Shown here in pieces: positions 731-45,719 of a stretch of DNA of 47,098 bases; position 1 is the stretch's first letter; every line of letters begins with the position of its first letter. The position numbers and the translations under genes were made by a program. The stretch spans positions 1-47,098 of the forward strand of contig JAQBNO010000101.1 in NCBI GenBank assembly GCA_028288485.1. The letters are read 5' to 3'. The stretch comes from Segetibacter sp. Lineage in GTDB: Bacteria > Bacteroidota > Bacteroidia > Chitinophagales > Chitinophagaceae. Under the pieces are notes generated by a model. That model was not told the origin of the DNA. It ran no database searches and saw only the letters and a list, made by a program, of their open reading frames with translations.

Positions 731-757
731 TTGCCGTTGCAGTGAGTGACACAACGA
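731..757 (-). repeat. Dispersed intergenic repeat, copy 1
   Basis: On the minus strand it reads ATCGTTGTGTCACTC followed by ACTGCAACGGCAA. It is nearly identical to the copy at 29715-29743. The similarity to that copy continues for about 35 bases on the plus-strand 3' side, ending in a shared CATAAAAAATA. Confidence 0.75.
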
Positions 758-860
758 TTTTGACAGGTGGACAAAGGCCGGTACCATAAAAAATACTATA
801 ATTAAAATTACCGTTAACATTTCATCAGAAGCAGCGAGGCTGAAGGGGAAGGATTAAAAT

Positions 861-893
861 AAAAAGCCGGTAAGTAAAACTTACCGGCTTTTT
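861..893 (-). terminator. Intrinsic terminator of the rplKAJL operon
   Basis: A 14-bp stem (861-874 with 880-893, core GCCGGTAAG/CTTACCGGC) with a 5-base loop is flanked by A-runs and T-runs, so it can work in both directions. It lies 24 bases past the rplL stop codon and closes the ribosomal operon. The operon therefore does not read into rpoB. Confidence 0.85.
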
Positions 894-916
894 ATTATTA
901 AGAAGTATTCTAATAA

Positions 917-1294
917 TTATTTTACTTCTACATCAGCTCCAGCTTCTTTCAGTTTAGCTGCAACTTCTTCAGCTTCTGCTTTAGCTACACCTTCTTTGAT
1001 TGGTTTTGGAGCCTGGTCAACTAAGTCTTTAGCTTCTTTCAAACCTAAACCAGTTAATTCTTTAACGATCTTAACTACCTGTAGTTTGCTTGCACCACCG
1101 CTTTTCAAAATTACATCGAAAGCAGTTTTTTCCTCTACAGCGGCAGCAGCAGGACCAGCAGAAGCAGGACCAGCAGCAGCTACAGCAGCAGCAGGTTCGA
1201 TACCATAAGTATCTTTAAGGATTTTAGCTAATTCGTTAACTTCTTTTACTGTTAAGTTAACCAGTTGTTCTGCGAATGCATTTAAGTCTGCCAT
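917..1294 (-). CDS. rplL: 50S ribosomal protein L7/L12
   Basis: This is the stalk protein of the large ribosomal subunit. It binds L10 as dimers and recruits the translation GTPases. The 125-residue product has the full family layout: an N-terminal dimerisation helix region (1-35), an Ala/Pro/Gly-rich flexible hinge (about 36-52) and a C-terminal domain from about residue 55, with the conserved stretches EKTAFDVIL and [12 protein letters not shown]. It ends in the typical GADVEVK. It is the last gene of a four-gene minus-strand operon, 150 bases after rplJ, and is followed by a strong terminator. The length is normal and the gene is intact. Confidence 0.97.
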
Positions 1295-1392
1295 TGTTTC
1301 AAATTTTTGCCGCCTTCAATGCCTGTGCTCCGGCGGAGTTTTTAAAAAAATTTGTGATATCAACCGTTCAGGCTCGGTTGAGTATTTTTTAG

Positions 1393-1437
1393 TTACCAGT
1401 TTCCGGTTGCAGGCTACCGGTAACAGGAAACTGGTAA
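1393..1437 (-). promoter_or_regulatory. Hairpin in the rplJ-rplL spacer
   Basis: A perfect 12-bp stem pairs TTACCAGTTTCC (1393-1404) with 1426-1437, with a 21-base loop that can itself pair through CCGG (1403-1406 with 1417-1420). It begins just past the rplJ stop codon. A second, smaller hairpin (CAACCG 1361-1366 with CGGTTG 1375-1380) follows. Reading on the minus strand, neither is followed directly by a T-run, so a processing or stability element, or an attenuator adjusting L12 to L10 stoichiometry, fits better than a terminator. The function is inferred. Confidence 0.55.
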
Positions 1438-1444
1438 TAAGTAT

Positions 1445-1981
1445 TTAAGCTTCTTGTGGTTGTCTGTCTTCCAAAGCTTTTAGTAAGCTTGCGAGTTTGC
1501 TTCCAGCATTTAAGCCGCTAATAACATTCTTGGCAGGAGATTGCAACAATCCGATAACTTCCCCGATAAGGTCGTTTTTGCTTTTGAGTGTTTTTAAGGC
1601 TTCCAGTTGATCGTCGCCCACGAATATTGCGCTGTCGATATAAGCAGCTTTTAAAACAGGTTTTTCACCTTTTGTGTCGGTACGAAAACTGCTGATGATC
1701 ATAGCAGGTTCTTTAGCATTTTCGCTAAAAAGAAGAGCAGTAACACCTCTCAGGCTATCATATACACCCGAGAATTTCTCTGCATCTATTCCTTCGAGTG
1801 CTTTGCGGATTAAAGTGTTTTTTGCCACTTTCATTTCTACATCTTTATCGAAGCAGATCTTGCGCAGTTTGTTAACCTGGGCTACAGATAATGCTTCTGT
1901 ATTAGTGATGTAGAAGTTATTATATTGATTGAATTTCTCTTTGAGAACTTCAATTGCTTCGTTTTTTTGCTCTTTAGTCAT
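1445..1981 (-). CDS. rplJ: 50S ribosomal protein L10
   Basis: L10 is the base of the ribosomal stalk. Its N-terminal domain binds 23S rRNA beside L11, and its C-terminal helix carries L7/L12 dimers. The 178-residue product begins MTKEQKNEAIEVL, has the family stretch VAKNTLIRKAL at about 53-63, and shows a C-terminal helical tail (SKLASLLKALEDRQ) for L12 binding. The gene starts 76 bases after the rplA stop codon. That spacer could hold an L10-binding leader as in other bacteria, but no convincing structure was recognised there. Confidence 0.95.
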   Translation of the reverse strand: MTKEQKNEAIEVLKEKFNQYNNFYITNTEALSVAQVNKLRKICFDKDVEMKVAKNTLIRKALEGIDAEKFSGVYDSLRGVTALLFSENAKEPAMIISSFRTDTKGEKPVLKAAYIDSAIFVGDDQLEALKTLKSKNDLIGEVIGLLQSPAKNVISGLNAGSKLASLLKALEDRQPQEA

Positions 1982-2057
1982 GACGCTGTTTATTTTTCAA
2001 CGCTTGTGGTAACACCAACCCGGGGGTCATTAGTTACTTCTACACGTTTGACTGATT

Positions 2058-2747
2058 TTAGGTGAATGATTTTGTGTCTACGGTAATACCAGGGCTCATA
2101 GAGCTGGCGATGCTTAAACCTTTCAGGTAAGTACCTTTAGCAGCAGACGGCTTCAGCTTCATAATTGCGTTGATAAATTCGGTGCTGTTAGCAACAAGTT
2201 TTTCAGGAGGAAATGAAACTCTACCGATAGATGCGTGAATGATACCCGCTTTGTCAACTTTAAAAGCGATTTTACCACCTTTAACTTCATTAACAGCAGC
2301 AGCAACATCATTTGTTACGGTACCTGTTTTAGGGTTTGGCATTAAGTTACGAGGACCTAATATTTTACCCAGTCTACCAATTCTTGGCATTACAGAAGGA
2401 GTTGCGACGATTACATCTACATCAGTCCATCCGCCTTCGATTTTTGTAATGAATTCATCAAGGCCAACATAATCAGCGCCTGCATTTCTTGCGTCATTTT
2501 CTTTATCAGGAGTGCAAAGAACCAATACTCTTTTTGTTTTACCCGTTCCGTGAGGTAAGGTTACCGTTCCACGAACCTGTTGGTCAGCTTTTTTAGGATC
2601 AACGCCCAAACGAACGTGCACATCTACCGAGCTGTCAAATTTTGTGATATTTACTTCTTTAACCAACGACGAAGCATCGGCGAGTGAATACACCTTGTTT
2701 TTATCTACCTTAGCTGCAACAGCTTTTCTTTTTTTAGTGATTCCCAT
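2058..2747 (-). CDS. rplA: 50S ribosomal protein L1
   Basis: L1 builds the mobile L1 stalk at the ribosomal E site and in many bacteria represses its own operon by binding mRNA. The 229-residue product begins [15 protein letters not shown] and contains the family segments [29 protein letters not shown] and the hallmark [16 protein letters not shown] near residue 130-145. Its length is standard. It starts 26 bases after rplK, as in the usual rplK-rplA pair. Confidence 0.97.
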
Positions 2748-2773
2748 TGTTAATCAGTTTAGAATTGATCAAT

Positions 2774-3347: not shown

Positions 3348-3659
3348 TTTATCGCTGTTTCATAAAATATTTGTAATATAAGGAGAATTTAATGGTACAG
3401 GGCGGCGCGTGGGGGTAAAGTTTGTTGCCGGCCGGTACTCAGTGCAGATTCACGTGCATTTCTTTCAGCCGCGCCAGGGCTATTTATCGTGTTCCTATAA
3501 ATATTAGAAAACGCCGAGTAACGATTTGCAGTACAACACGAGTGACATCACCAAAGGGGTTCCGTTCAAACAACGATGCTGCCACAAAAACCTATTGCCC
3601 GGTAACAACAAAGTCTGCCAAAAGGCACGACTTTTTAAACGTTTATTTCAAAATAATTT
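3348..3659. other. Intergenic region with a dispersed repeat
   Basis: No gene is supported. A 97-codon plus-strand frame (3422-3715) runs through the repeat copy at 3528-3578 and into the opposite-strand membrane gene, and resembles nothing known. Confidence 0.6.
3528..3578 (-). repeat. Dispersed intergenic repeat, copy 2 (variant with insertion)
   Basis: On the minus strand the repeat starts GCATCGTTGT and resumes at TGTCACTC, with about 22 extra bases between the two halves (including CCCTTTGGTGA). It ends with TTGTACTGCA. The copy at 18283-18330 has the same kind of insertion, so this is a sub-type and not a random break. Confidence 0.6.
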
Positions 3660-4238: not shown

Positions 4239-4253
4239 TTTCTTATCAATGGG

Positions 4254-5513: not shown

Positions 5514-5537
5514 TTTGATTCGGTAATTTAGATATGC

Positions 5538-6629: not shown

Positions 6630-6783
6630 CATTTGCTTCTATTGTATAAGCGTTTATCGATGCAATAGCAGCAGTGATTATATCCAAGTGAGAAAGAGAC
6701 GCAACTGGTGCAGAGGTGTCTCTTTTTTTTGTTTCATATAGATTTAGTGACCAATAGCGTTGGTACCAACACCAGTTTTCATA

Positions 6784-6817
6784 GCATCGTCGTTGCGTCG
6801 CAATCACTTTATCCGCA
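6784..6817 (+). repeat. Dispersed intergenic repeat, copy 3
   Basis: It reads GCATCGTCGTTGCGTCGCAA then TCACTTTATCCGCA, the GCGTCGC variant of the core. Similarity to the copy at 11802-11835 extends over about 100 bases (6759-6866 against 11779-11881), including a shared GTACCAAC upstream and AGTCTT downstream. Confidence 0.7.
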
Positions 6818-6907
6818 TATCTAATAGCAGCTTAAGTCTTTATTTCAAAGGCGCTTAAAAAATTTCAAACCGGTGGCAGAGTTCGAAAAGCATTAAACTG
6901 AAATAAT

Positions 6908-6957: not shown

Positions 6958-7977
6958 TTAAAACCTAACTGCCGGGCATTTAATTCCTCTTGACTTATCT
7001 ATCAAACCTTGCTTAACAATTGAAAATTCATATGCGCCACGGGTTTGATTGTAATTTTTTAAAGAAGATGCGGTTGCATCATAACTAAAAGTAAGTTTAT
7101 AGCCGTTCTGCTGGAATCCTACCATCGGAATAATAGCATCTGACACACGATAATAAGCCCCCATTATCAACTGCGTATTTCCGTCTCCGCTAAGGTCGCG
7201 TTGCGCATTACCCCCTGCAACTACTTCCCACGCCGTGGTAACTTTGCTTACATAAATGTTAGGATTTACGATCCATGCATCACTGGCACGAAAACTTCCG
7301 TTTACAAAAGTGGTGAGCCTGGTAGGGACACGGGTATCAACTAAACCGGGACTAAAAAAAGACTCCTTGGGCTGGTTAATATTTGAAGCACTAAAACCAA
7401 CATTGAGGTAGGTATTTTCATTCGGGTAGTAAGCATAATTCAGTCCGGCCTGCAAGGTAAAATAGTTAACCTGGTTGGTAACAAAAGGTTCACCACTCGG
7501 TGCGGAGATATCAAAAAACTTACCATTCCATTGGTTGTCAAAAGTAAGCTTGGTAAAATCTATTCTTTTATTTGTCCAGCCAACATTAAAGCCGGCGCTA
7601 ACCAAACTTCCCAGGCCAACAGCCTGGTGGTAAGCAACTGAGCCAAAAGCGCGGGTGGTAGTTAAATTACCTGTTCCTGCAACATCTCTTAACAGCGCGC
7701 CACCAACTCCAAGCCACCCGTTTTCAAACCTTTGTCCGAATAATTGCCCGTCTCCGTAAACACTAAAAGTTTTATACGGATTACCGACATTGGCCCATTG
7801 GTTTCTGTAGTTTACCCCAACTCTATAATCACCTTCGGGAATAAAGCCGGTATTCGCCGGATTTACTAAAAGTGGTGAGTTAAAATATTGGGAAAAATGC
7901 AGGTCCTGTGCCGACAAGTTTGACAGGGCTCCGAAAGCAATCGCAAAAAGCAAGCAATAACTAAATTTCTTTTTCAT
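6958..7977 (-). CDS. PorP/SprF family T9SS outer-membrane protein
   Basis: A 339-residue beta-barrel protein of the PorP/SprF family, which works with the type IX secretion system, often as a partner for one giant secreted protein encoded next door. The signal peptide ends about residue 24 (LSNLSAQ). The mature protein starts with the family hallmark QDLHFSQYFNSPLLVNPANTG. Many alternating strands with aromatic ends follow. The start codon lies only 15 bases after the stop of the giant cargo gene, so the two are co-transcribed, and the pairing suggests that PorP helps export or anchor that protein. Confidence 0.93.
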   Translation of the reverse strand: MKKKFSYCLLFAIAFGALSNLSAQDLHFSQYFNSPLLVNPANTGFIPEGDYRVGVNYRNQWANVGNPYKTFSVYGDGQLFGQRFENGWLGVGGALLRDVAGTGNLTTTRAFGSVAYHQAVGLGSLVSAGFNVGWTNKRIDFTKLTFDNQWNGKFFDISAPSGEPFVTNQVNYFTLQAGLNYAYYPNENTYLNVGFSASNINQPKESFFSPGLVDTRVPTRLTTFVNGSFRASDAWIVNPNIYVSKVTTAWEVVAGGNAQRDLSGDGNTQLIMGAYYRVSDAIIPMVGFQQNGYKLTFSYDATASSLKNYNQTRGAYEFSIVKQGLIDKSRGIKCPAVRF

Positions 7978-7992: not shown

Positions 7993-10900
7993 TCATCTTA
8001 ATAATGTGATATCCCCTTTCTTCTGAATATTCGTTTTGTCTGAATATTGAACATCTAAAACATAATGGTAAACCTCTTTTGGCTGTAAACTTCCATTGTA
8101 AATTCCATCCCATCCCCGGCTTCTGTCGTTGCTCTCGAAAACAACAGTTCCCCACCGGTTGTAAATTCTCCAAATCATTTTACTGATACCAAAACCTCGA
8201 ACATATACTTTATCGTTTATACCATCGCCATTCGGCGTAAAAGCGTTTGGTACATCAAGCAACGGAATTATTCTGGCGGCTATATTAGCACATACGGTAT
8301 CCTGGCAGCCAGAGTTGTTCATGGCGATAAGACATGTGTTAAAAGTATCCGTTTCATTGTAAACATGTTGTATTAAAGCGGAAGACTGGGTTAAAAGAGA
8401 GTCGCCGTCCCCAAATTTCCATAAAAATCTGGTAGCCCCGGTAGAACTGTTAAAAAAGTTAACCGGGGTATTTTCTTGTGGAGGATTTGGAGCAAAAGTA
8501 AAGGCAGCCACCGGCTTTCCCTTTATAGTAATGCCAAAACTAGTCGAATCAACAATGTTACAGGATGCCGAGTCAATCACCTTTAACTTAATCACATAGT
8601 TTCCGGGAATTGTATATTCATGAGTTGGACTTACCGTAGTTGAAGTTGCTCCGTCTCCAAAATTCCAACCGAATTGCTGGCCGCCGGCAGAAAGGTTTTT
8701 AAATACTGCGGTGTATGGTGCACATCCTGTTGGTGGCGTTTCAAATGCAGCTTTTACGTTGGTGGCAATCCTTAAAGCTTTAATAGTATCTGCCGGGGCG
8801 TTGCAGAAGTTCGTATCTGTTAATTCCAATCGTATTTTATATTCACCCGGTCCTGGAAAACTGTGCCTGACTGCATTCGTTCCTGCTACAACGGGCGCAG
8901 TATTATCTCCAAAATTCCAGGTAAAGGATGTATTTGTAAATGCCCTGGCAGCTGGTAAAACATAAGAGGTATTGGCAAATTCATAATTAAAAGAGTCGCA
9001 CGGTTCTAATTTTTTAGGTAAAAAATCGAGAAAAGCTTTGAAAGTTCTAACCTTAATAGTAGTATAAGCAGTATCGGCAATATTACACTTTGCACTATCA
9101 ATCGAAACAAGCCTGACACGATAACTACCGATTGCATTATATGTATGGCTGAAAGATGGAGTTGCAGTAGTAACATCGGGTGAGCCATCACCAAAATTCC
9201 AGACATAACTATTGCCTTGTGCAATAGTGTCAGTAAAGTCTACTGTTAAAGGCACACAACCTGTAGTATCCTGTACTACCCCCCGGATTGAGGACCTTAT
9301 ACTACCAGCCACACCTGCAAGGTTAAAGGCAATTTTTACTGCAGCCAGGTTACAGTTATCAGCAGGGTTTGAAGATGACCAGACACCCGGAGTTGTTGGA
9401 AAAGCAGGCTTTGGTCTTGAGCCGCAATTAGCACATAGAGCCTGGTAAATTACTCCATTTCGATCAAAACGGCTTGTCCCACCATCTACATGTTCTCCGG
9501 TTCCCCCATTTTGTCCGTAAAAACTTCCGTATAATTGTTTGGTCGCGTTTCTTTCCAGTACAAAAAAGTAAAAGTCGCTGTTGTCCGTTCCTCTTTGAAT
9601 AGCATCTGCTGTTACCGTTAAGCCGCTTGTACCCCCGCTAGGGTAACTCGTGCCTGTATTTACATTGCCGCCCCATCCAGAAACATACACATTTTCGCAT
9701 CTGTCTACAAGAAAGGCAATAGGCGAAAGGTTGGGGTCAGTTGTATTAGTACCAAACACTGTTGAATATTCATATGCCGACAGGTCTGGTTTTAATTTGG
9801 CAATAAATTGTTTTCCTCCGGCTTGCGAAAACAAGGCATTGATTACGGGCCACTTACCTGTTGTTGTTCCCATGATATAAGGAAAACCAAATTTATCGAA
9901 CTGTATACCATATACCATATCAACCCCGTCAGTTCCTATAAAAGTTGTTTTTAAAATAGAACTTCCGTCATTAGAAATAACAGAAACAAAACCGTCTGTT
10001 TCGCCCTTTTGGTGCGAAGGATATACAACGCCGGTAGTACTACCAGGTAAAGTTGTGCTGACTGTATTCCCTCCCACAAAGATGGTATTGTCGGATGGGT
10101 TTAAAGCGAGCACAAATGCTGCATCATCTTCATTACCCCCCAAAAAAGTACTCACTAAAATATTGCTGAGGTCGGCACTTGCCTTTATAATAACCCCATC
10201 CTGTTTTCCACCCGAAACGGCTTGAAAAGCACCCGGAGTGTTGGGAAAATCGACAGATTGTGTATTCGATGCAAGCCAAATATTACCAATATTATCAAAT
10301 AAAACCTCGCTTCTTGCATCATCCCCATAATTTCTGCGAATGCTAACATCACCAAGAGGAGCAACGGCTTTTGCACCAACATTAACCCCGTCTGCACCTG
10401 CACCCCCTATTTTTATCGATCCAATTAACTCAGTTCCGCCACTGTTTAGTTTAGTAAGAATTATATCATAATTTCCACCACCTTTATTAACCTTAGTTGG
10501 ATAATCGTTAGAGTTTGACCGCCCTCCTATTACAAGATTTCCCTCCGAATCGGCTACCAGGCTATGTGGTTGTTCATTTCGGGTTCCACCGATATAGGTT
10601 GCATAAACCCGGTTCATGCCATTGGGACTAAATTTCATTATCCCAATGTCGTAACCTCCAGCGCCTCCTTCCCGCTCTCCACCTATATAGGCACTTTGAA
10701 AAGCTCCTACACTTGTTGGAAAACCTACACCAAACACAATTCCTCCGGCATAAAAACTTCCGTCGGTACCGTAGGTAGCTGTGTATCCCCAGTTATCAGT
10801 TTTACTACCTGTAAAAGTTGAAAATATTAACGACGGGTCAATAACTAAAGGGGAAGAGCGGGAGTAATTCTTTACAGCAAATTGAACCAATTTGCCGGCC

Positions 10901-11604
10901 ACTTTAAACCTGCAGTCCACTTCCCTTTTTACTCCATTATCTACCTGGTAGGCATAAGGCGCGAGTTCCCTTACTTCACCTACAGATGTTTTGATAACCA
11001 ACTGCTCATTTTTTACACTTAATTCATCTACTCCTTCATATTTCATTGCGAGTTGCGAAAGGTCTGCACCAGGATGCACGATAATATCGTACTTAAGTTT
11101 GCCTTCATTAGTATAATACCTAATATCTATGCCACGATAAATCGACTGGTAATTAATTGCCTGGTAAATGCGGCAATTACCCTTCCATTTAGAACGATCA
11201 TTACCTATAAAGTAATTATTATAACTGTTTACAGGTTTGTCAGCAACAATAACAGGAGTGCGGGCATTTACAAACTGAACATCATAAGCATGAGATCGCA
11301 CAATTATTTCATCTTTATCACCGGGCGGAATAACAGGCTTAGCCGCAGTATTTTTAGCGGGTCCATGAAAATTACCATGATAAACATCACTGATTTCCTG
11401 AAGATCCTGAGGGTTGATCTGCAAGACCCTGAAGCCTTTCTCCTGTAGAAAAAAAGCGCCATTATTCATAACTCCTTTAAATTTTATTCTTTCGTCCCAT
11501 TGACCTTTGTTTTCGACAAATTCCAGGTTATCATATTGGCAAAAGCAGTCAGCAGTGCTACAAAGAATAGCCATTATGAAAGCCATTGAAATAGAGATCT
11601 TCAA
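7993..11604 (-). CDS. Giant secreted PKD-domain protein with T9SS type B sorting domain (copy A)
   Basis: A 1203-residue secreted protein. A signal peptide (about 1-23) is followed by an N-terminal domain with LEFVENKGQWD (28-250, as in DUF7948-type proteins), then a long SBBP-type beta-propeller region rich in TFLGG/ATYIGG motifs (about 255-780), four PKD domains (each with W-x-FGD-[GN], about 785-1110) and the type B sorting domain (1113-1203, PNAFTPNGDGINDKVYV). It is likely exported by T9SS and attached to the surface, for example as an adhesin. The start is a TTG that gives a charged n-region (MKISIS). An ATG six codons later is the alternative. It is a paralogue of the gene at 12150-15821. 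Confidence 0.9.
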   Translation of the reverse strand: MKISISMAFIMAILCSTADCFCQYDNLEFVENKGQWDERIKFKGVMNNGAFFLQEKGFRVLQINPQDLQEISDVYHGNFHGPAKNTAAKPVIPPGDKDEIIVRSHAYDVQFVNARTPVIVADKPVNSYNNYFIGNDRSKWKGNCRIYQAINYQSIYRGIDIRYYTNEGKLKYDIIVHPGADLSQLAMKYEGVDELSVKNEQLVIKTSVGEVRELAPYAYQVDNGVKREVDCRFKVAGKLVQFAVKNYSRSSPLVIDPSLIFSTFTGSKTDNWGYTATYGTDGSFYAGGIVFGVGFPTSVGAFQSAYIGGEREGGAGGYDIGIMKFSPNGMNRVYATYIGGTRNEQPHSLVADSEGNLVIGGRSNSNDYPTKVNKGGGNYDIILTKLNSGGTELIGSIKIGGAGADGVNVGAKAVAPLGDVSIRRNYGDDARSEVLFDNIGNIWLASNTQSVDFPNTPGAFQAVSGGKQDGVIIKASADLSNILVSTFLGGNEDDAAFVLALNPSDNTIFVGGNTVSTTLPGSTTGVVYPSHQKGETDGFVSVISNDGSSILKTTFIGTDGVDMVYGIQFDKFGFPYIMGTTTGKWPVINALFSQAGGKQFIAKLKPDLSAYEYSTVFGTNTTDPNLSPIAFLVDRCENVYVSGWGGNVNTGTSYPSGGTSGLTVTADAIQRGTDNSDFYFFVLERNATKQLYGSFYGQNGGTGEHVDGGTSRFDRNGVIYQALCANCGSRPKPAFPTTPGVWSSSNPADNCNLAAVKIAFNLAGVAGSIRSSIRGVVQDTTGCVPLTVDFTDTIAQGNSYVWNFGDGSPDVTTATPSFSHTYNAIGSYRVRLVSIDSAKCNIADTAYTTIKVRTFKAFLDFLPKKLEPCDSFNYEFANTSYVLPAARAFTNTSFTWNFGDNTAPVVAGTNAVRHSFPGPGEYKIRLELTDTNFCNAPADTIKALRIATNVKAAFETPPTGCAPYTAVFKNLSAGGQQFGWNFGDGATSTTVSPTHEYTIPGNYVIKLKVIDSASCNIVDSTSFGITIKGKPVAAFTFAPNPPQENTPVNFFNSSTGATRFLWKFGDGDSLLTQSSALIQHVYNETDTFNTCLIAMNNSGCQDTVCANIAARIIPLLDVPNAFTPNGDGINDKVYVRGFGISKMIWRIYNRWGTVVFESNDRSRGWDGIYNGSLQPKEVYHYVLDVQYSDKTNIQKKGDITLLR

Positions 11605-11801
11605 TCCGGATATTTTTTATAAGTTACAAATGTTCAGCGAATAAAGCTGAATTCTGTTTACTTGTTGCGTTGTTAAAATTGGTCGTTGTTTGCCAAACTC
11701 AGGAACGGTATGCAATTAATTTTTAGGGTCGCAAGCAGTAGTTTTCGTCGAATACCTGAACGTTTACGTATAACTTTTTTTGTACCAACTTCACTTTTAA
11801 A

Positions 11802-11835
11802 GCATCATACTTGCGTCGCATTCCGTTCGTCCGCA
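11802..11835 (+). repeat. Dispersed intergenic repeat, copy 4
   Basis: Core TTGCGTCGCATTCCGTTCGT followed by CCGCA. It is nearly the same as the copy at 36260-36289 and similar over about 100 bases to the copy at 6784-6817. Confidence 0.7.
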
Positions 11836-11997
11836 TCTCTACCTGCATCCTGAGTCTTCTATAAAATCCCTTCAAAAATTTGCGTAGCCTTCTTATCTAA
11901 CACTGGTAAGGTTTCCTGAACAAGGTAGCAAAACTTACACTCACTTAATTACAGGTAAAGAAGTAACACGGTTGCTTTGCTGCATAGTGAACTATTA

Positions 11998-12022
11998 GTA
12001 CAAGAGTGCGACGCAACGATGT
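11998..12022 (-). repeat. Dispersed intergenic repeat, copy 5
   Basis: On the minus strand it reads ACATCGTTGCGTCGCACTC then TTGTAC. This copy joins the two sub-types: the GCGTCGC core with the CTC..TTGTAC tail of the GTGTCAC form. It is inverted relative to copy 4, 160 bases away. Confidence 0.7.
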
Positions 12023-12149
12023 ATCCTAGTAAGATGCTGCTGTGGCCAATAGAAAGATTAATTAAAACAATAGAATGTTGCAGGAATAAGAAAAACAACC
12101 ACTCTCTTTCGTTTATACACCTATCGTACGTTACTTTTCGTGGCTTTTA

Positions 12150-15821: not shown

Positions 15822-15915
15822 TCTGATAATTTTTCTAAAAGTTACACTCAATATACGAACTAAAGCTAAATACTGTTTGGATGCACACATTGTTAAATTT
15901 GGTTGGCTCACGCCG

Positions 15916-18078: not shown

Positions 18079-18147
18079 CGATCAGTCAAACCAATAAAAA
18101 GAAGCGTTTTAAAAACTTTTTTGTTTACCGGCTTTAGTCCTTTTATG

Positions 18148-18177
18148 TACATCGTTGTGTCACTCCCTTTTACCGCA
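18148..18177 (+). repeat. Dispersed intergenic repeat, copy 6
   Basis: It reads TACATCGTTGTGTCACTCCC then TTTTACCGCA. The upstream flank (from about 18112, ACTTTTTTGTTTACCGGC) also resembles the flank of copy 1 when that is read on the minus strand, so the repeat unit is about 65-70 bases. Confidence 0.75.
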
Positions 18178-18282
18178 AAACCAGGTGCGCCATCTTTCAT
18201 GCAATATACTCCACACCCTTCGCTGTATATTATTAATGTAAGGAGCTTGACAAATAAGGCTGCTGATGCCATGAGAACAACT

Positions 18283-18330
18283 GGCCCAAGAGAGTGACAT
18301 CACCAAAAGGATCCATTCCGACAACAAAAG
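18283..18330 (-). repeat. Dispersed intergenic repeat, copy 7 (variant with insertion)
   Basis: On the minus strand TTTTGTTGTC and TGTCACTCTCTTGGG are separated by about 20 bases that include CCTTTTGGTGA, matching the insertion of copy 2. Confidence 0.55.
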
Positions 18331-22350: not shown

Positions 22351-22406
22351 ATTATAACCAACTTTAGCGCGGGTGTTTTTGGTTAGCGAGCGGAAGAATA
22401 GCCATG

Positions 22407-22437
22407 TAACATTGTTGTGTCACTCACTTGTACGGCA
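22407..22437 (+). repeat. Dispersed intergenic repeat, copy 8
   Basis: It reads TAACATTGTTGTGTCACTC then ACTTGTACGGCA and lies just past the mlaD stop codon. Confidence 0.75.
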
Positions 22438-22480
22438 AATGGTTGCGGTACTTTTATTTCAGAAATGATTTCAACAGATA

Positions 22481-27976: not shown

Positions 27977-28363
27977 ACACTTCCGGGTTAGAGGATGATA
28001 AGCAGATTCTTGTCTTCCAACTTTTCAATCTTCAACGTACATCGTTGTGTCACTCCCTTGTACTGTATCTTTTTATGGCGTCACTATTTCAAATAATAAT
28101 TTTTCTTTCCATTCTCACGTAGCTACTGATAACTAAATTGAAATTATAGTTGTTATAGTGTTTTAAAGGTAAGCGACAACAAAGGCAAATGCTGCCAAAA
28201 CCCGCCCTGCCCGCCGGGCACAAGAGCAACAAGGTGGCTTTAAAAAATGAAAGCCGGTATTCAAAATACTGATACATCACAACAGGTAACATCGTTAACT
28301 TCTGCAATCAACTTCTCATCATTCTTTTATAAACTTACCAAAGAGTGAAGGGACACCTATTGA
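27977..28363. other. Intergenic region between convergent genes with a repeat
   Basis: No gene is supported. The region holds one dispersed repeat copy (28038-28067) and a short GC-rich palindromic stretch (CCCGCCGGGC, about 28210). Confidence 0.6.
28038..28067 (+). repeat. Dispersed intergenic repeat, copy 9
   Basis: It reads TACATCGTTGTGTCACTCCC then TTGTACTGTA, almost identical in the core to copy 6 (18148-18177). Confidence 0.75.
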
Positions 28364-29461: not shown

Positions 29462-29809
29462 GAAGAAAAGTTACTAAATCAATAATTAAGTAAAAATCAG
29501 GATTTAATAGCAGCATTTAAAAACTAAATACCGTTTGTTTCTATTTCTTGCCGACAACCCTGATTTTTTATAGAAGGCCTGAACCGAGCAATTTTTTGTT
29601 ACTAGCAACGGTACAACTGGCGACATCCCTTCCATTCTTAAAAAACCTGCAGTAATAAATAAGCAGTAACCAATTGGCGGTGCTTTATAAGCTTTGTACA
29701 TGTTGAAATACCATTTGCCGTTGCAGTGAGTGACACAACGATGTTAAATGGATATTCAAAAGTTGGTCGCATAAAAAATAAAAAAAAGAATACCTGGCAT
29801 AGGCTTTTT
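29462..29809. other. Spacer between the PorV-like gene and the sortase gene, with a repeat
   Basis: No gene is supported. A 65-codon minus-strand frame (29504-29701) has no family resemblance. The spacer holds the dispersed repeat copy at 29715-29743. Confidence 0.6.
29715..29743 (-). repeat. Dispersed intergenic repeat, copy 10
   Basis: On the minus strand it reads CATCGTTGTGTCACTC then ACTGCAACGGCAA, the same as copy 1 across the whole core. Confidence 0.75.
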
Positions 29810-32800: not shown

Positions 32801-34699
32801 ATATCCTGCAGGATCTGCTGTTTTGCTAAAGCTTGCGACGTTGGCGCCAAAAGCTGTGTCTGAAATAAGTTCTTTGTAATTATTTAAATAAGCATCCAAC
32901 TGGTTACCTAACCCAATATCGTTGGCTCCTTCAATCTGTATCACATTTTTCATCCACCCTTTTGCTTCAATTGTTTGTGTCGTATCAACTTTAGTCGAGT
33001 CATGTTGCTTTACTTTTAAAAGGTAGTCGCCTATTTCGCGGGGAGTAACCGCCGATAATCGCCCTATAGGGGTAGCAGGTAATGCCGTTAAGTCTGCAGA
33101 AGCCAGCAAATTATCCGATGCGGGATTACCCCAGGTAGGCACAAGGTTAAGTCTGTCGGCCAGGGAATTGCTTTCGTTCGAACGATATTCATTGTAAACA
33201 ACACCTTTGCCAATCAGGAATACATTTTTAGGTGCAGCAGCAAAATTTTCGCGGGCAAAGCGTAGAAAATTTTTAATCGATAGAGGATGTTTTTTTATAC
33301 CCCATGCAAACTGGTCAACCAATTCATTTATATCAATAATTTTTGCATTAAAGGAGCCGCCCTGCTGCGAAGACCGGTATTGCTGGTATTGCTCTACATA
33401 ATTTTCAGAACCGCTACCATAAATAAGCGGGTTACTGATAATCAGGTAATCGCCCTGCTTGTCAACAGTGGAGAAATCAGTAAATTTTCTCGTTTCAATA
33501 TTTGTAATTTCCTTATAATATGCACCTGAAGACGTTGTAAGTACAAGGTTATAATCAACATCAGAAGGTGCAAGTACAATTTTTATCGTGTCGGGATTTG
33601 AAATATTACCTACGTATCGCTTTCCACTTGCCAGGTCATATAAAACCGGGGGAACACCTGTATGTTTAAAATTGGTGATTTCAAGGTAATGTCCCTTTGA
33701 AGACCTTTCTAATGGGAAGTTAAAAATTGAAGCGCCACCCATGTTAAAGACTCTCGGGTAAGTAAGTTCAACCATAGCTACCCTCATTTCGTCGCAGCCA
33801 TTCCGGCTCTTATTAACGATTTCAAAATTGGCAGTACCTGTACTTATTTTGCTCACGTTTAAAGCCGCTGTCGACTTTACATAATTAATATAATCCATCT
33901 GAAAGGTCGTAACTACTTCCGTATTCAGTTTGATCTGAACGACGCGGCTGTTTTGTAAATCTCCAATAGCGTTTACCCGCATTGTCATCTTCGGCCCTGC
34001 GAGATAAGGATACAAATTGAAAAAATTCTGTGGCAAAGTCGCAGACCCACAACCCGCTACAGGCCTTACTGCACGGCTTACCCAACCTTCACCCCGATCG
34101 TAAGAGGAGGAATACAGGCTTTTGTTAAGGCTGGCAGAGAAGCCATTGGATAAGGCAGAACGAAAATACCTGCCAACAGTATTCATAAAATACGGTGTTG
34201 CAGGTAGAGTATTATTGGCTACATTATTATTTACTGTAACAAGTCGTTTATTCGCAGAGGCAGTATTAACGGTCAAAAAGTAAGCGGCGGTATCGGTTTG
34301 AAGGCTCCATTTGTCACTTAGCTGGAAATCCGGGTCCCGGTACATTTGCCGGTCGAGTTTGCCATTGTTGATCTCCCCAAAAAATTCCAAATAGTCACTG
34401 TTCGCAAGGGTGCCTGAAGAAGCAGAAACAAATATCGGCACTTCCTCTCCATCTCTCCATAACTGAAAATGTTCTGAAGCGGTTGCTCCTAAACCAGCCG
34501 CAGCAAGTGTTGAAAAAGGGATACGCACCAATCCTTTTCTAATGGGAACGTTCACTTCATCGAGGCCAAAACCCATTACTTTGCATTTGTAATAGGTTTT
34601 ACTGAAATCTATCCATTCATTATTATAGGGGTAAGTTTGACCAATAGCCAGGGATGAAATGAAAAGAAAAATACAAAACCACCATGCCTTTAGGTTCAT
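29810..34699 (-). CDS. porU2: Putative T9SS sortase PorU2-like (C25 peptidase)
   Basis: A 1629-residue secreted protein. It has a signal peptide (LKAWWFCIFLFISSLAIGQ), a long beta-rich N-terminal part, a gingipain-type C25 peptidase domain (about 415-800) with the catalytic pair visible as H656 (TYFGHSSAT) and C686 (VANGCSAGNH), several beta-sandwich domains, and a T9SS type A sorting domain at the end (LFPNPVKDLLTI, GTYLVQIDNG). PorU removes the C-terminal signal from T9SS cargo and attaches the cargo to surface lipopolysaccharide. The ATG at 34699 is preferred over upstream TTG codons. It could also be a secreted C25 protease, but the PorV-like neighbour favours a sortase. Confidence 0.87.
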   Translation of the reverse strand: MNLKAWWFCIFLFISSLAIGQTYPYNNEWIDFSKTYYKCKVMGFGLDEVNVPIRKGLVRIPFSTLAAAGLGATASEHFQLWRDGEEVPIFVSASSGTLANSDYLEFFGEINNGKLDRQMYRDPDFQLSDKWSLQTDTAAYFLTVNTASANKRLVTVNNNVANNTLPATPYFMNTVGRYFRSALSNGFSASLNKSLYSSSYDRGEGWVSRAVRPVAGCGSATLPQNFFNLYPYLAGPKMTMRVNAIGDLQNSRVVQIKLNTEVVTTFQMDYINYVKSTAALNVSKISTGTANFEIVNKSRNGCDEMRVAMVELTYPRVFNMGGASIFNFPLERSSKGHYLEITNFKHTGVPPVLYDLASGKRYVGNISNPDTIKIVLAPSDVDYNLVLTTSSGAYYKEITNIETRKFTDFSTVDKQGDYLIISNPLIYGSGSENYVEQYQQYRSSQQGGSFNAKIIDINELVDQFAWGIKKHPLSIKNFLRFARENFAAAPKNVFLIGKGVVYNEYRSNESNSLADRLNLVPTWGNPASDNLLASADLTALPATPIGRLSAVTPREIGDYLLKVKQHDSTKVDTTQTIEAKGWMKNVIQIEGANDIGLGNQLDAYLNNYKELISDTAFGANVASFSKTADPAGYPEAVNSFKNIYEKGASLITYFGHSSATSLDFNLDNPENYNNHHKYPIFVANGCSAGNHFLFEPDRLNTKSTISEKFVLSPERGAVGYLASTHFGVVNYLDLYTNDFYKALGKTRYNQSVGAVITEAIRSSLDSTGSDDYYSRVHAEQYAFHGDPAIMINSSPLPDYVIEKPQVQVTPAFVSVSDSVFAVKVKIYNIGRATGDSVSFQLNREKPDGDIVNLVTKSFSSIKVFDSITVEIPVVGNLEKGINKITATIDYKSSVAELSENNNSVTIEVKISEDEIRPVYPYNYAIVTDPGTKLYASTVNPLNILRDYVMEIDTATLFNSSFKIVKKTTATGGIVEFDPAITFESGLTYYWRVAPANEVDPHWLLSSFVFNRSGFTGSQQGHIYQNLNSELKSISLDSSGKYTYKGKVHNLFITNSIYPTSGVEDGHFSVAVDGSTSIVSACVGSSVIFNVFDPVTFKPTLNTTQPFGAPLACSAGREYNFEYSYATAASRKNAMNFIDAVPAGSYVSARIILDAPYNSFAANWAADTALYGKGNSLYHRLKQNGFKVIDSFYKARTWSFVFKKGDLSFTPAYAMSNGVYDRITLSVNCTTPYTQGTITSPAFGPSKTWKNVIWEGFSAEMGNDVPLVNVYGIKPGKADTLLYSLDSTKHSFDISAVDPAQYPFIKLQMNNKDSVTVTPYQLTNWRLSYDPVAEGAIAPNLYYNIPDSVSATNPDTNSVAGFLKLGVGFKNVSDVDFDSLDVKVTLFDSLQNEYAFPVKKLHPLAGGDTMHINLDLDVSGLGGWYNVFIQVNAANAQPEQFSFNNFLYKKVYIEKATTLPVSLVDFNTVLQKDYVKTSWVVASAMNANRYEVEHSSNGISFNTIGTVTATRQNSYFFNHFNPSVGKNYYRLKMIDNDGSFKFSGVTVVTVEKGIEVTLFPNPVKDLLTIKLNNIDNRLFDVRMLNIYGQQLWHRKVNGAVQVNMQKMAAGTYLVQIDNGNSVNSYKIQKQ

Positions 34700-34910
34700 G
34701 ATCAACAAAGATTTATAACTATACCCACTTCAACGAAAAAAATTTATTTTATTTTGATTCCTGGAGATATATTGCCTCCAGGTGAAAATAATTGAACCAG
34801 GCGGTATTCCTGCCGGCATAAGATGACAACGCCCAAAGCGCTTCGTTTATTACTCTAGCTCCTATTTCAAAGGCTGTTTCTTTTGGTTATTCAGGTTAAA
34901 CTTTCTGCTT

Positions 34911-36224: not shown

Positions 36225-36528
36225 GCTGCTTTGGTTACTAACATTAAGTCTTTGCGAATCATTCTTGCGTCGCATTACGTTCGTCCGCAAATCCTTGCGC
36301 ATCTTTTTCCTGGTCATATTTTTAACTTTTGAAAGACCAGGTTTAAGACAACATCGGCTAGCTTATACGCTTTTTTTACTACTGCCTTGCAGAAGGTTGA
36401 GCTCTGTTTATTAAACAAACTCTTTCTCATATTCCTCTGATTTTAAAGCCATCTCCTTATCTCAAACATTATCCCGCATGATTTTACATTATTTCATAAC
36501 TTTTGACATACTACTATTTATCGCTTAA
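36225..36528. other. Region downstream of tyrS
   Basis: It holds one dispersed repeat copy (36260-36289) and a CCTGGTC/GACCAGG hairpin (36309-36315 with 36335-36341, 19-base loop) that might help end tyrS transcription. No gene is supported. Confidence 0.5.
36260..36289 (+). repeat. Dispersed intergenic repeat, copy 11
   Basis: Core TTGCGTCGCATTACGTTCGT followed by CCGCA, one base different from copy 4 (11802-11835) over 25 bases. Confidence 0.7.
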
Positions 36529-40090: not shown

Positions 40091-40240
40091 GAGACTTATT
40101 TAGCGATGGATGTAAGACAGTGGCAATTTACTGTTTTTTAGCCTTCTGTTACAGCAAATAAAACGGATGGTGCGTTAACATAAGAGAGAAATAAAAGAGC
40201 AATAACCAACTAAAAAAGTTCTTTATGCTCCCCAAATGCC

Positions 40241-40270
40241 TGCAGTTGAACGGAGCGTCGCAACAACTGC
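40241..40270 (-). repeat. Dispersed intergenic repeat, copy 12 (diverged)
   Basis: On the minus strand it reads GCAGTTGTTGCGACGCTC then CGTTCAACTGCA, sharing the GTTG-[CT]G-x-C-x-CTC frame. The GCGACGCTCCGTT form is shared with copy 13. Confidence 0.5.
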
Positions 40271-40325
40271 TTCCATCAGAACTGCTGGTGACTTTCAAAA
40301 AATCACTTCAACCTGGTCGGGGTAA

Positions 40326-40380: not shown

Positions 40381-41271
40381 TTAATCCCAGTCCTTCATTA
40401 CGGGTGTGGTTTCTTCGGCCATTCGCTCTACAAACTTACGATCATGAACGAGGTAGCCGTTTCCTTTAGCACACAAATGCACTTTAATATTCTCAACACT
40501 CATCGGGTTACCTTCGGGGATGTCGGCAATGTTGCTGTGACGAATATCATGACCATCAATAATAACAACCAGGCCGCTACCAATTGCCTCCATCTGATCA
40601 CCGTCTGTAACCAACATGCCGGTATCTTCGCCAAGACCAATACCAATACAAGAAGGGTTGGAACCAACAGCCTGTGAAAGTCGTCCAAAACGGCCGCGTT
40701 TTTCAAAATGAGAGTCAAAAATTACCCCGTGCATAAAACCCAGCCCAGTAGTGATCTTCACTTCTCCTTTTAAATGAGCCCTTGATGCTTCACCTTCGTA
40801 AATCATGGTATTGCTCATCGCCATTGCACCTGCAGAGGTGCCGGCAACTACAAAATTTTCGTTTTTGTACCGGCTATGAAGGGTTCTCAGAAACTGGGTG
40901 CCACCAAATATTGAAGTAAGACGCAACTGATTGCCGCCCGTGAACATAACTGCATCACAATTTTCTATCCTCTCCTGGTAGTCTTCCTCCATAACATCTT
41001 CACGTGTTCGGATGTGCATTACGCCAACATTTGTGCAACCTATTCTGCCAAAAGCTTCCAGGTAATTATTTCCCACTTCTAATGGAATACGGGAGGCAGT
41101 AGTAATCACTTCAATCCGGGCTAAAAGACCGCCTGCTTCTTCTACAATCCTGCGTAGGATGCCCAGTTCGAAAAAATTTAGATTGTGGTGGATAGAGAGG
41201 ACCTTTTCCAATTCTGTGCCCTTATCTTCTGCACCACCAATTGCAATAAGTTTTCCTTTAATTTCCGCCAT
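40381..41271 (-). CDS. cphB: Cyanophycinase
   Basis: A serine exopeptidase of family S51 that degrades cyanophycin to beta-Asp-Arg dipeptides. The 296-residue product has the nucleophile S146 in VVAGTSAGAMAMS, the conserved VMFTGGNQLRL and the C-terminal IGLGEDTGMLV. The length is standard for intracellular CphB. It is divergent from cphA with 353 bases between the starts, so synthesis and breakdown genes may be switched from a common control region. Confidence 0.94.
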   Translation of the reverse strand: MAEIKGKLIAIGGAEDKGTELEKVLSIHHNLNFFELGILRRIVEEAGGLLARIEVITTASRIPLEVGNNYLEAFGRIGCTNVGVMHIRTREDVMEEDYQERIENCDAVMFTGGNQLRLTSIFGGTQFLRTLHSRYKNENFVVAGTSAGAMAMSNTMIYEGEASRAHLKGEVKITTGLGFMHGVIFDSHFEKRGRFGRLSQAVGSNPSCIGIGLGEDTGMLVTDGDQMEAIGSGLVVIIDGHDIRHSNIADIPEGNPMSVENIKVHLCAKGNGYLVHDRKFVERMAEETTPVMKDWD

Positions 41272-44246: not shown

Positions 44247-44322
44247 GAGCGAAGATTTTGAGATTGTGCAGTTTTGAGATCTGAAGATTTGTTGAGTTAT
44301 TTTTTCAGTACTTAAAAAAATA

Positions 44323-44353
44323 TTTGGTCGAATGTGTGCAAGCCTTATTTTTG
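44323..44353 (+). promoter_or_regulatory. Promoter of tRNA-Gln
   Basis: TTTG (44323-44326), a 19-base spacer and TATTTTTG (44346-44353) match the Bacteroidota consensus TTTG-N19/20-TAnnTTTG fully. The tRNA starts 35 bases later. A GC-rich palindrome (GCCCG..CGGGC) lies between. Confidence 0.75.
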
Positions 44354-44387
44354 CACTCCAATTTACGCCCGCCTGACGGGCCAGGAT

Positions 44388-44458
44388 TGCCCGATAGTAT
44401 AATGGTAGTACGACAGTTTTTGGTACTGTTTGTCGAGGTTCGAATCCTTGTCGGGCAA
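44388..44458 (+). tRNA. tRNA-Gln (anticodon TTG)
   Basis: The acceptor stem TGCCCGA (44388-44394) pairs with TCGGGCA (44451-44457). The anticodon stem ACAGT/ACTGT (44413-44417, 44425-44429) holds the loop TTTTGGT with anticodon TTG at 44420-44422. The T-arm contains GGTTCGAATCC. CCA is not encoded. 71 bases in total. A hairpin terminator follows. Confidence 0.95.
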
Positions 44459-44496
44459 CAAAAAAGCGGATTGTTTTAAAACAGTCCGCTTTTTTA
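44459..44496 (+). terminator. Intrinsic terminator after tRNA-Gln
   Basis: AAAAAGCGGA and TCCGCTTTTTT form a stem with an inner GTTTT/AAAAC pairing. It ends in a T-run and can act on both strands. Confidence 0.85.
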
Positions 44497-44556
44497 TTTA
44501 ATAATGTTTAATGCAGTCAGCTTCCTTTTGAAACCAGCATCTCACTTTGTTCAACT

Positions 44557-44584
44557 TTGCTTGCGACGCTCCGTTTTGACCGCA
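44557..44584 (+). repeat. Dispersed intergenic repeat, copy 13 (diverged)
   Basis: It reads TTGCTTGCGACGCTCCGTTT then TGACCGCA, with the GCGACGC core shared with copy 12 and the CCGCA end shared with others. Confidence 0.5.
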
Positions 44585-44610
44585 TGAATCCTATTTGTCC
44601 TTTTTTCAAA

Positions 44611-44721
44611 TCACTGCATACGTTTTATCCTTTTTTTCATGATATCAATGTGCTCGATAACCTTTTCAATACTTCGGCGGGGAATTTTTAAATCATTTAT
44701 TACCCGCTGCCCATTGCTCAT
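44611..44721 (-). CDS. Small hypothetical ORF (36 residues)
   Basis: The frame MSNGQRVINDLKIPRRSIEK with VIEHIDIMKKRIKRMQ is basic and helical. Its ATG overlaps the TGA of the preceding ORF (ATGA), the usual mark of translational coupling. No family is recognised. It may be chance, but the overlap and helix pattern are suggestive. Confidence 0.3.
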   Translation of the reverse strand: MSNGQRVINDLKIPRRSIEKVIEHIDIMKKRIKRMQ

Positions 44722-44915
44722 GTGTTTGTTTTAGAAGAAGTTCTATTTGAAATACATCGACCAGAAAGAACCAATGCGTATAGAAAATAAACACACGCCA
44801 ATAATGATACTAAACTGTGTAACAATATCGCCTGAAAGGTAACCCGCCAGGTGCCTGCTACCGGTTCGTATATTAACCCATACGTTGCTATAACGAAAAT
44901 CGTAATCAACAACAA
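44718..44915 (-). CDS. Hypothetical two-helix membrane peptide
   Basis: A 65-residue frame beginning at a TTG with two hydrophobic stretches (LLITIFVIATYGLIY and LLHSLVSLLACVYFLYALVL). It follows the DUF350 gene on the same strand by 36 bases and is joined to the next small ORF by an ATGA overlap. A competing frame (44743-44940) covers the same region, so the true frame, or a broken gene, cannot be decided by eye. Confidence 0.35.
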   Translation of the reverse strand: MLLITIFVIATYGLIYEPVAGTWRVTFQAILLHSLVSLLACVYFLYALVLSGRCISNRTSSKTNT

Positions 44916-44951
44916 GCACTACGCACCGGTACATTTTCAATACATGTAGTT

Positions 44952-45155
44952 CTATTGAATGGCTGATGCAATAATAATGGCCATCGACACCATGAAGAAG
45001 CCTGCCAATACCGCCAAAGCCAGGTTGTTTTTTTCGAGTATTTCCCGCCGTAGGTTATGTTTCGGCGTTAATACCTCTATAAGTATAAAGACCGCTAGAA
45101 GTATCCCAATTCCTAACAAGGCATACACGACGGAAGCGATTATAGCATTTTGCAT
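44952..45155 (-). CDS. DUF350 domain membrane protein
   Basis: A 67-residue protein with two membrane helices and the DUF350 pattern: VVYALLGIGILLAVFILIEV, LTPKHNLRREI, then EKNNLALAVLAG, the loop before the second helix (FFMVSMAIIIASAIQ). DUF350 proteins are small inner-membrane proteins of unknown function. This one carries a single unit. It may be transcribed with the small ORFs below it. Confidence 0.82.
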   Translation of the reverse strand: MQNAIIASVVYALLGIGILLAVFILIEVLTPKHNLRREILEKNNLALAVLAGFFMVSMAIIIASAIQ

Positions 45156-45719
45156 ATTTATAAATTTACTTTTATCTAAAATGATTATCTATGACGACCG
45201 GCTGTGTTTGCGCTCCACTCCTGCTGACTCCCAAACGAAAATATTCTCGAACCTCTATAGTTGTGCATACGCCAGGCAAGTAGTTAATACTGCAGTTATG
45301 ATTATCCACCGTTGAAAAGGATACAAGGTCGAACCAGGTAGCAATAATGTGTGGCCCTGCTAAATACATGCAGTCGAATTGACAGTAAACAAATATATAG
45401 GCAGAAAAATAAATAACGTGAAACTTTTAAAATATTGTTACCCGCTTATGTACTACATTCTTTTGCACCAGATCAGCTTTTTTTTATTAATTTTTATGGA
45501 CCATCGGGCGAGTTTTATTGGTTCTTTTGTTGTGTCACTCACTTATACCGCATGTTTTCATGGCATCGTTCCTCAGTACGCTACAAGTTTTTATTGTTTG
45601 GACACATAAATTAAAACCTATCGTTACAAGGAACCACGGATGGAAAGAAAATTAAAAATAAAGGTGTAACGGCCTGGTTACGTATCATAACTCTGATCAT
45701 CCAATAATCGTAGGGCATA
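45156..45719. other. Intergenic region with a repeat
   Basis: About 560 bases between the DUF350 start and the ArsR-type start (divergent genes). A 76-codon plus-strand frame (45379-45609) runs through repeat copy 14 and is not supported. No other gene is seen. Confidence 0.6.
45525..45552 (+). repeat. Dispersed intergenic repeat, copy 14
   Basis: It reads TTTTGTTGTGTCACTCACTT then ATACCGCA, the GTGTCAC form. Confidence 0.7.

What the first reader, a model, noticed from the sequence alone, without database searches (positions are those of the whole stretch)
731..45552. Dispersed intergenic repeat family with at least 14 copies in 47 kb
A repeat with core CATCGTTGTGTCACTC, usually followed by TTGTACCGCA, occurs in gaps at 731-757, 3528-3578, 6784-6817, 11802-11835, 11998-12022, 18148-18177, 18283-18330, 22407-22437, 28038-28067, 29715-29743, 36260-36289, 40241-40270, 44557-44584 and 45525-45552, in both orientations and only between genes. 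Some copies are alike over 65-100 bases. Two sub-types differ by transitions (GTGTCAC against GCGTCGC), and copy 5 mixes both. Two copies share an insertion of about 22 bases. It could be a REP/BIME-like or MITE-like element, or a structured site used for DNA organisation.
Basis: seen in the sequence. Interest (0 to 1): 0.72.

Follow-up and report, generated by a model that had tools for sequence, protein, structure and literature searches.

The report
Alternating paired intergenic DNA sites
Some bacteria of one family carry hundreds to thousands of copies of a short, strictly conserved DNA site between their genes, and close neighbours usually point in opposite directions, which resembles the known REP/BIME repeats but lacks their hairpin and does not follow their enzyme.

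Summary
The repeat is real: 963 matches to a 20-base pattern in the own genome, control 1. A copy is about 76 bp: T-run, left half L, strict core (type A GTTGTGTCACTCACTTGTAC or type B GTTGCGTCGCACWCTTGTAC and relatives), right half R. It is intergenic: 2 of 436 hits in two species lie inside predicted genes. Of 147 genomes of the family 89 have a match, up to 2384 copies. L is only about 38% identical between copies, with no recent duplicates in the samples compared, yet the core mostly stays intact. New here: neighbours alternate in orientation. Under 3 kb, 248 of 271 successive pairs are opposite, also outside the genus (47 of 52); with one gene between, 71 of 78. Close pairs mostly face R to R and pair A with B. 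This is BIME/REPIN-like, but there is no REP-like hairpin in the short form, and the genome with 2384 copies has no Y1 (RAYT-type) match. A ~460-bp repeat inserts at the core. Best reading: BIME-like paired DNA sites for an unidentified protein; the protein and the function are not shown.

The parts
723..792 (-). copy 1, type A
   Evidence: profile E 1e-7
3528..3611 (-). copy 2, type A with a ~23-base insert between GTTG and TGTCACTC
   Evidence: left half at E 2; insert read
6762..6827 (+). copy 3, type B (GTTGCGTCGCAATC form)
   Evidence: E 3e-5; E 0.01
11775..11835 (+). copy 4, type B (CTTGCGTCGCATT form); R-to-R pair with copy 5
   Evidence: E 0.1
11979..12054 (-). copy 5, type B (GTTGCGTCGCACTCTTGTAC)
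   Evidence: E 9e-9
18116..18187 (+). copy 6, type A; R-to-R pair with copy 7
   Evidence: E 2e-8
18283..18330 (-). copy 7, type A with insert; not found by the profiles
   Evidence: read only
22376..22443 (+). copy 8, type A
   Evidence: E 2e-8
28010..28080 (+). copy 9, type A; with copy 10 flanks one gene in opposite orientation
   Evidence: E 1e-7
29702..29777 (-). copy 10, type A
   Evidence: E 9e-9
36230..36289 (+). copy 11, type B (CTTGCGTCGCATTACG form)
   Evidence: E 0.1
40234..40302 (-). copy 12, GCGACGC variant core, 3' of the gene 40381-41271
   Evidence: E 3.9
44557..44584 (+). copy 13, CTTGCGACGCTCCG variant; not found by the profiles
   Evidence: read only
45491..45567 (+). copy 14, type A
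   Evidence: E 1e-4

Best explanation
A BIME-like system of paired DNA sites. Each copy is a directional site of about 76 bp whose strict core (type A or B) is recognised by a protein that we have not identified; the T-run end (L) tends to lie next to the nearest gene end. Shown: strict core, intergenic place, two types, opposite orientation of neighbours out to about 3 kb, A/B preference in close pairs. Inferred: the site acts as DNA, not RNA; the core is kept at each place by selection or by a homogenising process; two copies in the same orientation with a gene between are harmful or unstable. The mechanism I find most likely for the last point is strand-specific processing of two same-strand copies, as HUH transposases do on single-stranded DNA at the replication fork, which would remove the gene between direct copies but not between inverted ones. 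The enzyme is unknown and is not a Y1 transposase in the richest genome.
For: Core constraint: an L-only profile trained on another species (G001) finds 57 places in own, of which 41 have an intact core word, 3 one mismatch, and 13 two mismatches or only a TTG-like start (loose classes); in G009 16 of 21 are intact and 4 have one mismatch. Copies are otherwise about 38% identical in L against 27% background. Alternation: same/opposite for successive pairs under 3 kb is 5/68 own, 3/44 G009, 5/47 G001, 10/89 in 106 named loci; of those, the 54 loci not titled Segetibacter give 5/47. By genes between, own and G009: 7/71 (one), 20/66 (two), 23/40 (three), 15/15 (five); also with three co-directional genes, 4/26. 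Under 1 kb, 92 of 110 are R-to-R; under 500 bp 65 heterotypic and 25 homotypic among opposite pairs. DNA rather than RNA: no strong conserved fold, and orientation to transcription is mixed: in tandem gaps 102 with L to the stop against 58 own, 58 against 51 G009 (counts, tests). Stability: at 112 orthologous 3' ends own/G009 both 9, own only 19, G009 only 10, neither 74 (p 0.02); 6 of the 9 are forward in both.
Against: No binding protein or enzyme found. Same-orientation pairs between 500 and 3000 bp are not rarer when homotypic (8 of 86) than heterotypic (13 of 93; counts, p 0.36), so simple homologous deletion does not clearly explain the rule, but the numbers are small. Neighbouring genes show no change of relative orientation between two species (0 of 65 pairs), and none of 13 lineage-specific gene segments is simply bracketed by a pair, by my reading, so no recombination product was seen. 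Copy number varies from 0 to 2384 in one family, so the function is dispensable. In tandem gaps own shows a strand bias (p 0.0006), G009 none (p 0.57). Spacing is more even than random in own but not in G009. Only 63 of 366 occupied gaps of 120 bp or more hold more than one copy.
Confidence: 0.45

Rival explanations
1. Classical REP/REPIN: non-autonomous element copied by a RAYT (Y1) transposase, single copies being decayed halves.
For: R-to-R inverted pairs with variable spacer; two types; extragenic; an IS200-like Y1 gene exists in own; 10 of the 13 genomes with 100 or more copies have a Y1 match.
Against: So have 97 of the other 134. G164 with 2384 copies, G048 (294) and G096 (115) have none (G164 is not among the 107 listed with a match). 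Within the genus G001 (779 copies) has 2 weak or broken matches, G007 (2 copies) has 7. The own Y1 gene has no copy within its 2-kb locus; I read other palindromes beside it. No strong stem in the short form. No near-identical copies.
Confidence: 0.08
2. Old mobile element that targeted T-runs near gene ends; the core is what its lost transposase recognised; today's copies are remnants.
For: Copy number differs widely between species; constant T-run at the L end, often near stops and starts; many lineage-specific positions.
Against: Remnants should lose the core as fast as L and R, which they do not. Empty orthologous sites are not richer in T-runs (14 of 25 against 69 of 109). None of the 38 single-gene R-to-R spans looked like a transposase from its first 60 residues (not searched against families). 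Does not by itself give alternation across genes.
Confidence: 0.22
3. Paired sites that a protein bridges into small loops (insulators or supercoil barriers, as proposed for gyrase or IHF at BIMEs).
For: Inverted neighbours over gene-sized distances; preference for convergent gaps in own: 55 of 93, tandem 137 of 349, divergent 27 of 129.
Against: Brackets do not clearly follow operons: in spans of two or more genes under 6 kb, opposite pairs are 46 of 70 around co-directional and 45 of 63 around mixed genes in own, 20 of 24 and 17 of 28 in G009. Very uneven across species.
Confidence: 0.2
4. DNA-uptake-like sequence kept by biased transformation.
For: Strict core, weaker flanks, variable number between species.
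Against: Near-core words are not enriched in coding DNA of own: 20 and 31 at up to 2 mismatches against 30-36 for four control words; G009 28 and 34 against 31-38. Alternation is not expected.
Confidence: 0.03
5. Transcription terminator or other RNA element of gene 3' ends.
For: L end close to stops: median 68 bp own, 43 bp G009.
Against: No strong conserved fold; ordinary terminators are as common with the element (19 of 96 against 31 of 182; 8 of 56 against 30 of 149); mixed orientation.
Confidence: 0.04

Closest known systems
BIME / REP of enterobacteria and others (PMC2817692: abstract and passages seen; the pairing of Y and Z types is recalled)
   Same: Extragenic, hundreds of copies, alternating orientation, insertion hot spot, possibly DNA organisation.
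   Different: No palindromic REP unit; alternation reaches across genes to about 3 kb (whether REPs do so was not tested here); not tied to a Y1 transposase.
REPIN (PMC8049555, passages seen)
   Same: Two inverted units with a variable spacer; singles also exist.
   Different: REPINs are copied by RAYT; here most occupied gaps hold one copy, close pairs are mostly of two types, and no recent copying is seen.
CGTC-tagged REPs (PMC3733652: one passage and part 1 of 4 of the Results seen)
   Same: The cores contain CGTC (B) or TGTC (A), as that tag does; Bacteroidetes are listed for that family.
   Different: No 8-9 bp stem beside the tag.
IS insertion into REP (PMC1525189, abstract seen)
   Same: A repeat serves as a specific landing site.
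   Different: The ~460-bp inserted repeat is too short for a transposase gene; it was not compared with an IS library.

Membership tests
REP | short palindrome forming a stem-loop | tested here: not met
   RNAalifold on ungapped sets: none in 70 own type A copies; elsewhere weak stems of 3-6 bp, and an interrupted one of 9 pairs on one strand of 8 G001 copies; none below -3.4 kcal/mol. Hairpin-bearing variants are a minority (35 of 274)
REP | extragenic, over 100 copies | tested here: met
REP | linked to a RAYT (Y1) transposase | tested here: not met
   tested with PF01797 only
BIME | neighbouring units in alternating orientation | tested here: met
BIME | binding by gyrase or IHF | not testable with these tools
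REPIN | inverted doublet as copied unit | tested here: inconclusive
   close pairs are R-to-R (92 of 110), but 303 of 366 occupied gaps of 120 bp or more hold one copy and no recent copies were seen
MITE | near-identical copies | tested here: not met
   highest L identity 0.82 in 152 own copies, 0.88 in 87 G001 copies
MITE | terminal inverted repeats and target-site duplication | not tested
   no empty site could be aligned
DNA uptake sequence | enriched also in coding DNA | tested here: not met
structured RNA (Rfam) | match to a known family | tested here: not met
   window: one tRNA only; six further loci: none

The most novel reading that the evidence does not exclude
A genome-wide orientation code: two types of intergenic site, read by an unknown conserved protein of the Chitinophagaceae, flank single genes in opposite orientation by rule, because same-orientation pairs within about 3 kb are eliminated. 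This would be a new kind of chromosome-organising or strand-specific DNA-processing system.
Probability: 0.3. Interest if true: 0.88.

Novelty: new variant of a known kind. Interest (0 to 1): 0.7.

Why it matters
What REP-type repeats do for their host is unsettled (PMC8049555, passages), and the known ones are tied to RAYT transposases. A family with the same arrangement, up to 2384 copies, no hairpin unit and no such transposase in the richest genome lets two questions be tested apart: what spreads the sites, and what keeps neighbours in opposite orientation. The distance limit of about 3 kb is a number that a mechanism must explain.

Tried and rejected
Rejected or unsupported: RAYT REP; IS110 as user of the core (no PF02371 match in own; other IS110 models not searched); conserved RNA; terminator; hairpin upstream of the T-run (median energy -0.3 against 0 in shuffles; at or below -6: 9 of 79 against 4 of 79); DNA-uptake sequence; T-run as pre-existing target; mobile cassette bracketed by pairs (13 segments); transposase inside R-to-R spans (38 proteins, first 60 residues read); local inversion between species (0 of 65). 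Incomplete detection as the cause of alternation: by reasoning it should make spans with R ends facing a gene the rarest class, but they are as common (34) as the reverse (37). Coding on the reverse strand was considered by reading only. Plasmids: no match; phages: one weak match, E 0.2. Exact matches in viral contigs: 10 stretches, not shown to be viral rather than host DNA. Papers: searches listed no description of this repeat; one search searched four core words, and its five papers, seen in the listing only, are by title on plants, a ciliate and mink.

The control on E. coli REPs was not run. Correlation of Y1 and copy number was read from two tables, not computed.
Full report
What is there. 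The window lies in a 6.38-Mb draft genome of 220 contigs. Contig lengths of the relative G009 (544,689 and 334,175) equal those of two Segetibacter aerophilus contigs, so the genus is probably Segetibacter, family Chitinophagaceae; this is an inference.

Anatomy. From 75 copies chosen by an intact core and later 230, taking the first core base as 0: a T-run at -38 to -33 followed by G/T and G, CCRGC near -27 to -23, pyrimidine-rich -16 to -8, ACATC up to -1; core 0 to 19; then a weak right half to about +38 that resembles a shortened left half by eye. Because these copies were chosen by the core, its conservation there is built in; one search is the independent test. Type A core is GTTGTGTCACTCACTTGTAC; type B is STTGCGTCGCA followed by several endings (such as CTCTTGTAC, CACTTGTAC, ATCACTTCATC, TTCCGTTCGTC). 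Anchored on the right half alone, positions 4 and 8 are T/A or C/G; a T-G or C-A mixture is seen in 0 of 82 own (3 have another letter), 0 of 64 G001, 1 of 15 G009 and 0 of 185 in named loci (2 are A-A). Position 10, outside the small palindrome, goes with them, so this is two discrete types rather than proof of pairing. Variants carry an insert at one point of the core, between GTTG and the TGTCACTC or TCGCA part; several inserts are hairpins by reading, some followed by a T-run and a GAGCGAAGCCGAAGGG repeat. Of 274 own hits 122 are B, 109 A, 35 B with hairpin-type core, 4 A with insert, 4 other.

Place. In 1.204 Mb of own DNA 274 hits, 1 inside a predicted gene (coding 0.74); in 1.0 Mb of G009 162 hits, 1 inside (0.79). 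Gaps of 120 bp or more with a copy, own: convergent 55 of 93, tandem 137 of 349, divergent 27 of 129; G009: 22 of 51, 97 of 294, 21 of 100. The L end lies close to gene ends: medians to a stop 68 and 43 bp, to a start 143 and 98.5 bp; the R end is further off (187 and 107 to a stop, 289 and 199 to a start).

Conservation. Outside the core, copies are not far from random DNA: mean identity in L 0.384 own and 0.381 G001, flanks about 0.27; the highest of 11,476 own pairs is 0.82 and of 3,741 G001 pairs 0.88. Yet an L-only profile trained on G001 finds 57 places in own, of which 41 have an intact core word and 3 one mismatch (the other 13 fall in loose classes), and 21 in G009, of which 16 are intact and 4 have one mismatch. 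At 112 orthologous 3' ends between own and G009 both have a copy in 9, only own in 19, only G009 in 10, neither in 74 (Fisher p 0.02). Of the 9, 6 are forward in both, and in those 6 the types agree by my reading (A with A three times, B or B-derived with B three times). So some copies appear old and inherited in place, with the core kept; turnover is still high.

Distribution. In the 39 genomes none of the 15 from other families of the order has a match. In 147 genomes of the family 89 have at least one; 13 have 100 or more by my count of the listing, with 2384, 1691, 1523 and 1454 at the top. Named genera with exact matches include Segetibacter, Ferruginibacter, Niabella, Foetidibacter, Limnovirga, Deminuibacter, Flavisolibacter and Parafilimonas (capped list).

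Alternation. This is the main new observation. With exact-core hits, successive copies under 3 kb are in the same orientation 5 times and opposite 68 times in own, 3 and 44 in G009, 5 and 47 in G001, 10 and 89 in 106 named loci, 0 and 7 in four loci of high-copy genomes. The named loci include Segetibacter; the 54 listed loci with another title give 5 and 47, the 26 titled Segetibacter 3 and 22. Beyond 4 kb own has 53 same and 62 opposite, G009 38 and 41. Shuffling orientations within contigs gives, for pairs under 4 kb, a mean of 46 same against 11 of 97 seen in own (lowest of 1000: 32), 31 against 11 of 63 in G009 (17) and 24 against 9 of 64 in G001 (13). By number of genes between, own and G009 together: none 11 same of 69 (partly double hits), one 7 of 78, two 20 of 86, three 23 of 63, four 16 of 42, five 15 of 30, six or more 31 of 63. 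It holds when the gene and both its neighbours are on one strand (4 same of 30), so it is not a by-product of gene direction. Under 1 kb, 92 of 110 pairs have their R ends facing, 13 the reverse, 5 the same orientation. Under 500 bp opposite pairs are heterotypic 65 to 25 (p 3e-5); between 500 and 3000 bp 80 to 78. The genes between such neighbours look ordinary from their first 60 residues (68 read).

What it is not. Y1 transposases do not track the repeat: of the 13 genomes with 100 or more copies 10 have a PF01797 match, of the other 134 genomes 97 do (counted from the tables). G164, one contig, 2384 copies, does not appear among the 107 genomes with a match; G048 (294) and G096 (115) have none. 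The intact Y1 gene of own has other palindromes after it, which I read in the printed sequence. Folding of aligned copies gives weak stems only. Terminators, uptake-sequence behaviour and T-run targeting were tested without support.

The core as landing site. A repeat of about 460 bp (48 matches in own, about 29 of them near full length) starts CTACTAATGAACTCG and ends near AAGGTTT. I scanned one strand of 30 fetched loci: 19 left ends in 18 loci, nearly all with a left-half-like sequence before them by eye; in 14 of the 19 the right end runs into CTTGCGTCGCA or a close variant with its right half; in 5 the search found no such core. Nine copies in the tiles were aligned; at least three of these are also among the 30 loci. 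So another repeat is inserted at the junction of left half and core in many different copies. It contains an inner copy with hairpin, and a ~145-bp segment that occurs without the rest in other species of the genus and folds strongly (z -5.8). No longer version with a transposase was seen in the match lists, and own has no PF02371 match.

Interpretation. The arrangement (two types, inverted pairs, gene-end location, landing site) is that of BIMEs, for which alternating orientation, gyrase and IHF binding are described (PMC2817692, abstract and passages), and of REPINs (PMC8049555, passages). The unit fails the REP tests made here: stem and RAYT. I favour paired DNA sites for an unknown protein, with same-orientation neighbours removed. 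That homotypic and heterotypic same-orientation pairs are about equally rare (8 of 86, 13 of 93; p 0.36) speaks, weakly, for a protein that reads both types rather than for homologous recombination. Excision of single strands between same-strand sites, as in IS200/IS605 elements (recalled; start of the abstract of PMC6006769 in the listing), would give both the orientation rule and a limit of a few kb, but it is inference, and no enzyme was found.

Noticed in passing
L161:4245-4385 (-), L251 near 7333-7470 and 11495-11632 (-): A ~140-base dispersed intergenic repeat of the genus with a very stable predicted fold (-60.4 kcal/mol, z -5.8); no Rfam match in the loci searched.
   Followed up: partly
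L197:13334-13800 and further matches in own (48 in all): A ~460-bp repeat inserted at the junction of left half and core of the short element; contains an inner copy with hairpin.
   Followed up: partly
own contigs C13, C31, C54: GAGCGAAGCCGAAGGG-type small palindromes, sometimes in tandem, mostly inside the hairpin-bearing variants.
   Followed up: partly
L029:1900-2040: The only intact Y1 transposase gene found in the genome is followed by palindromes GTTGGGCTCTGCCCAAC and GTTGAGCTCTGCTCAAC by reading, possibly its own REP.
   Followed up: no
window 7993-11604 and 12150-15911: Two neighbouring giant paralogues with DUF7948, PKD repeats and a CHU_C type IX secretion signal, next to a PorP/SprF gene.
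   Followed up: no
window 29810-34708: Peptidase family C25 (gingipain family) protein with a Por secretion tail.
   Followed up: no
G009 C5, 220-320 kb (L249-L253): A row of ~800-residue paralogues that read like transporter permeases (not searched against families), several flanked by opposite copies with L ends facing the gene.
   Followed up: no
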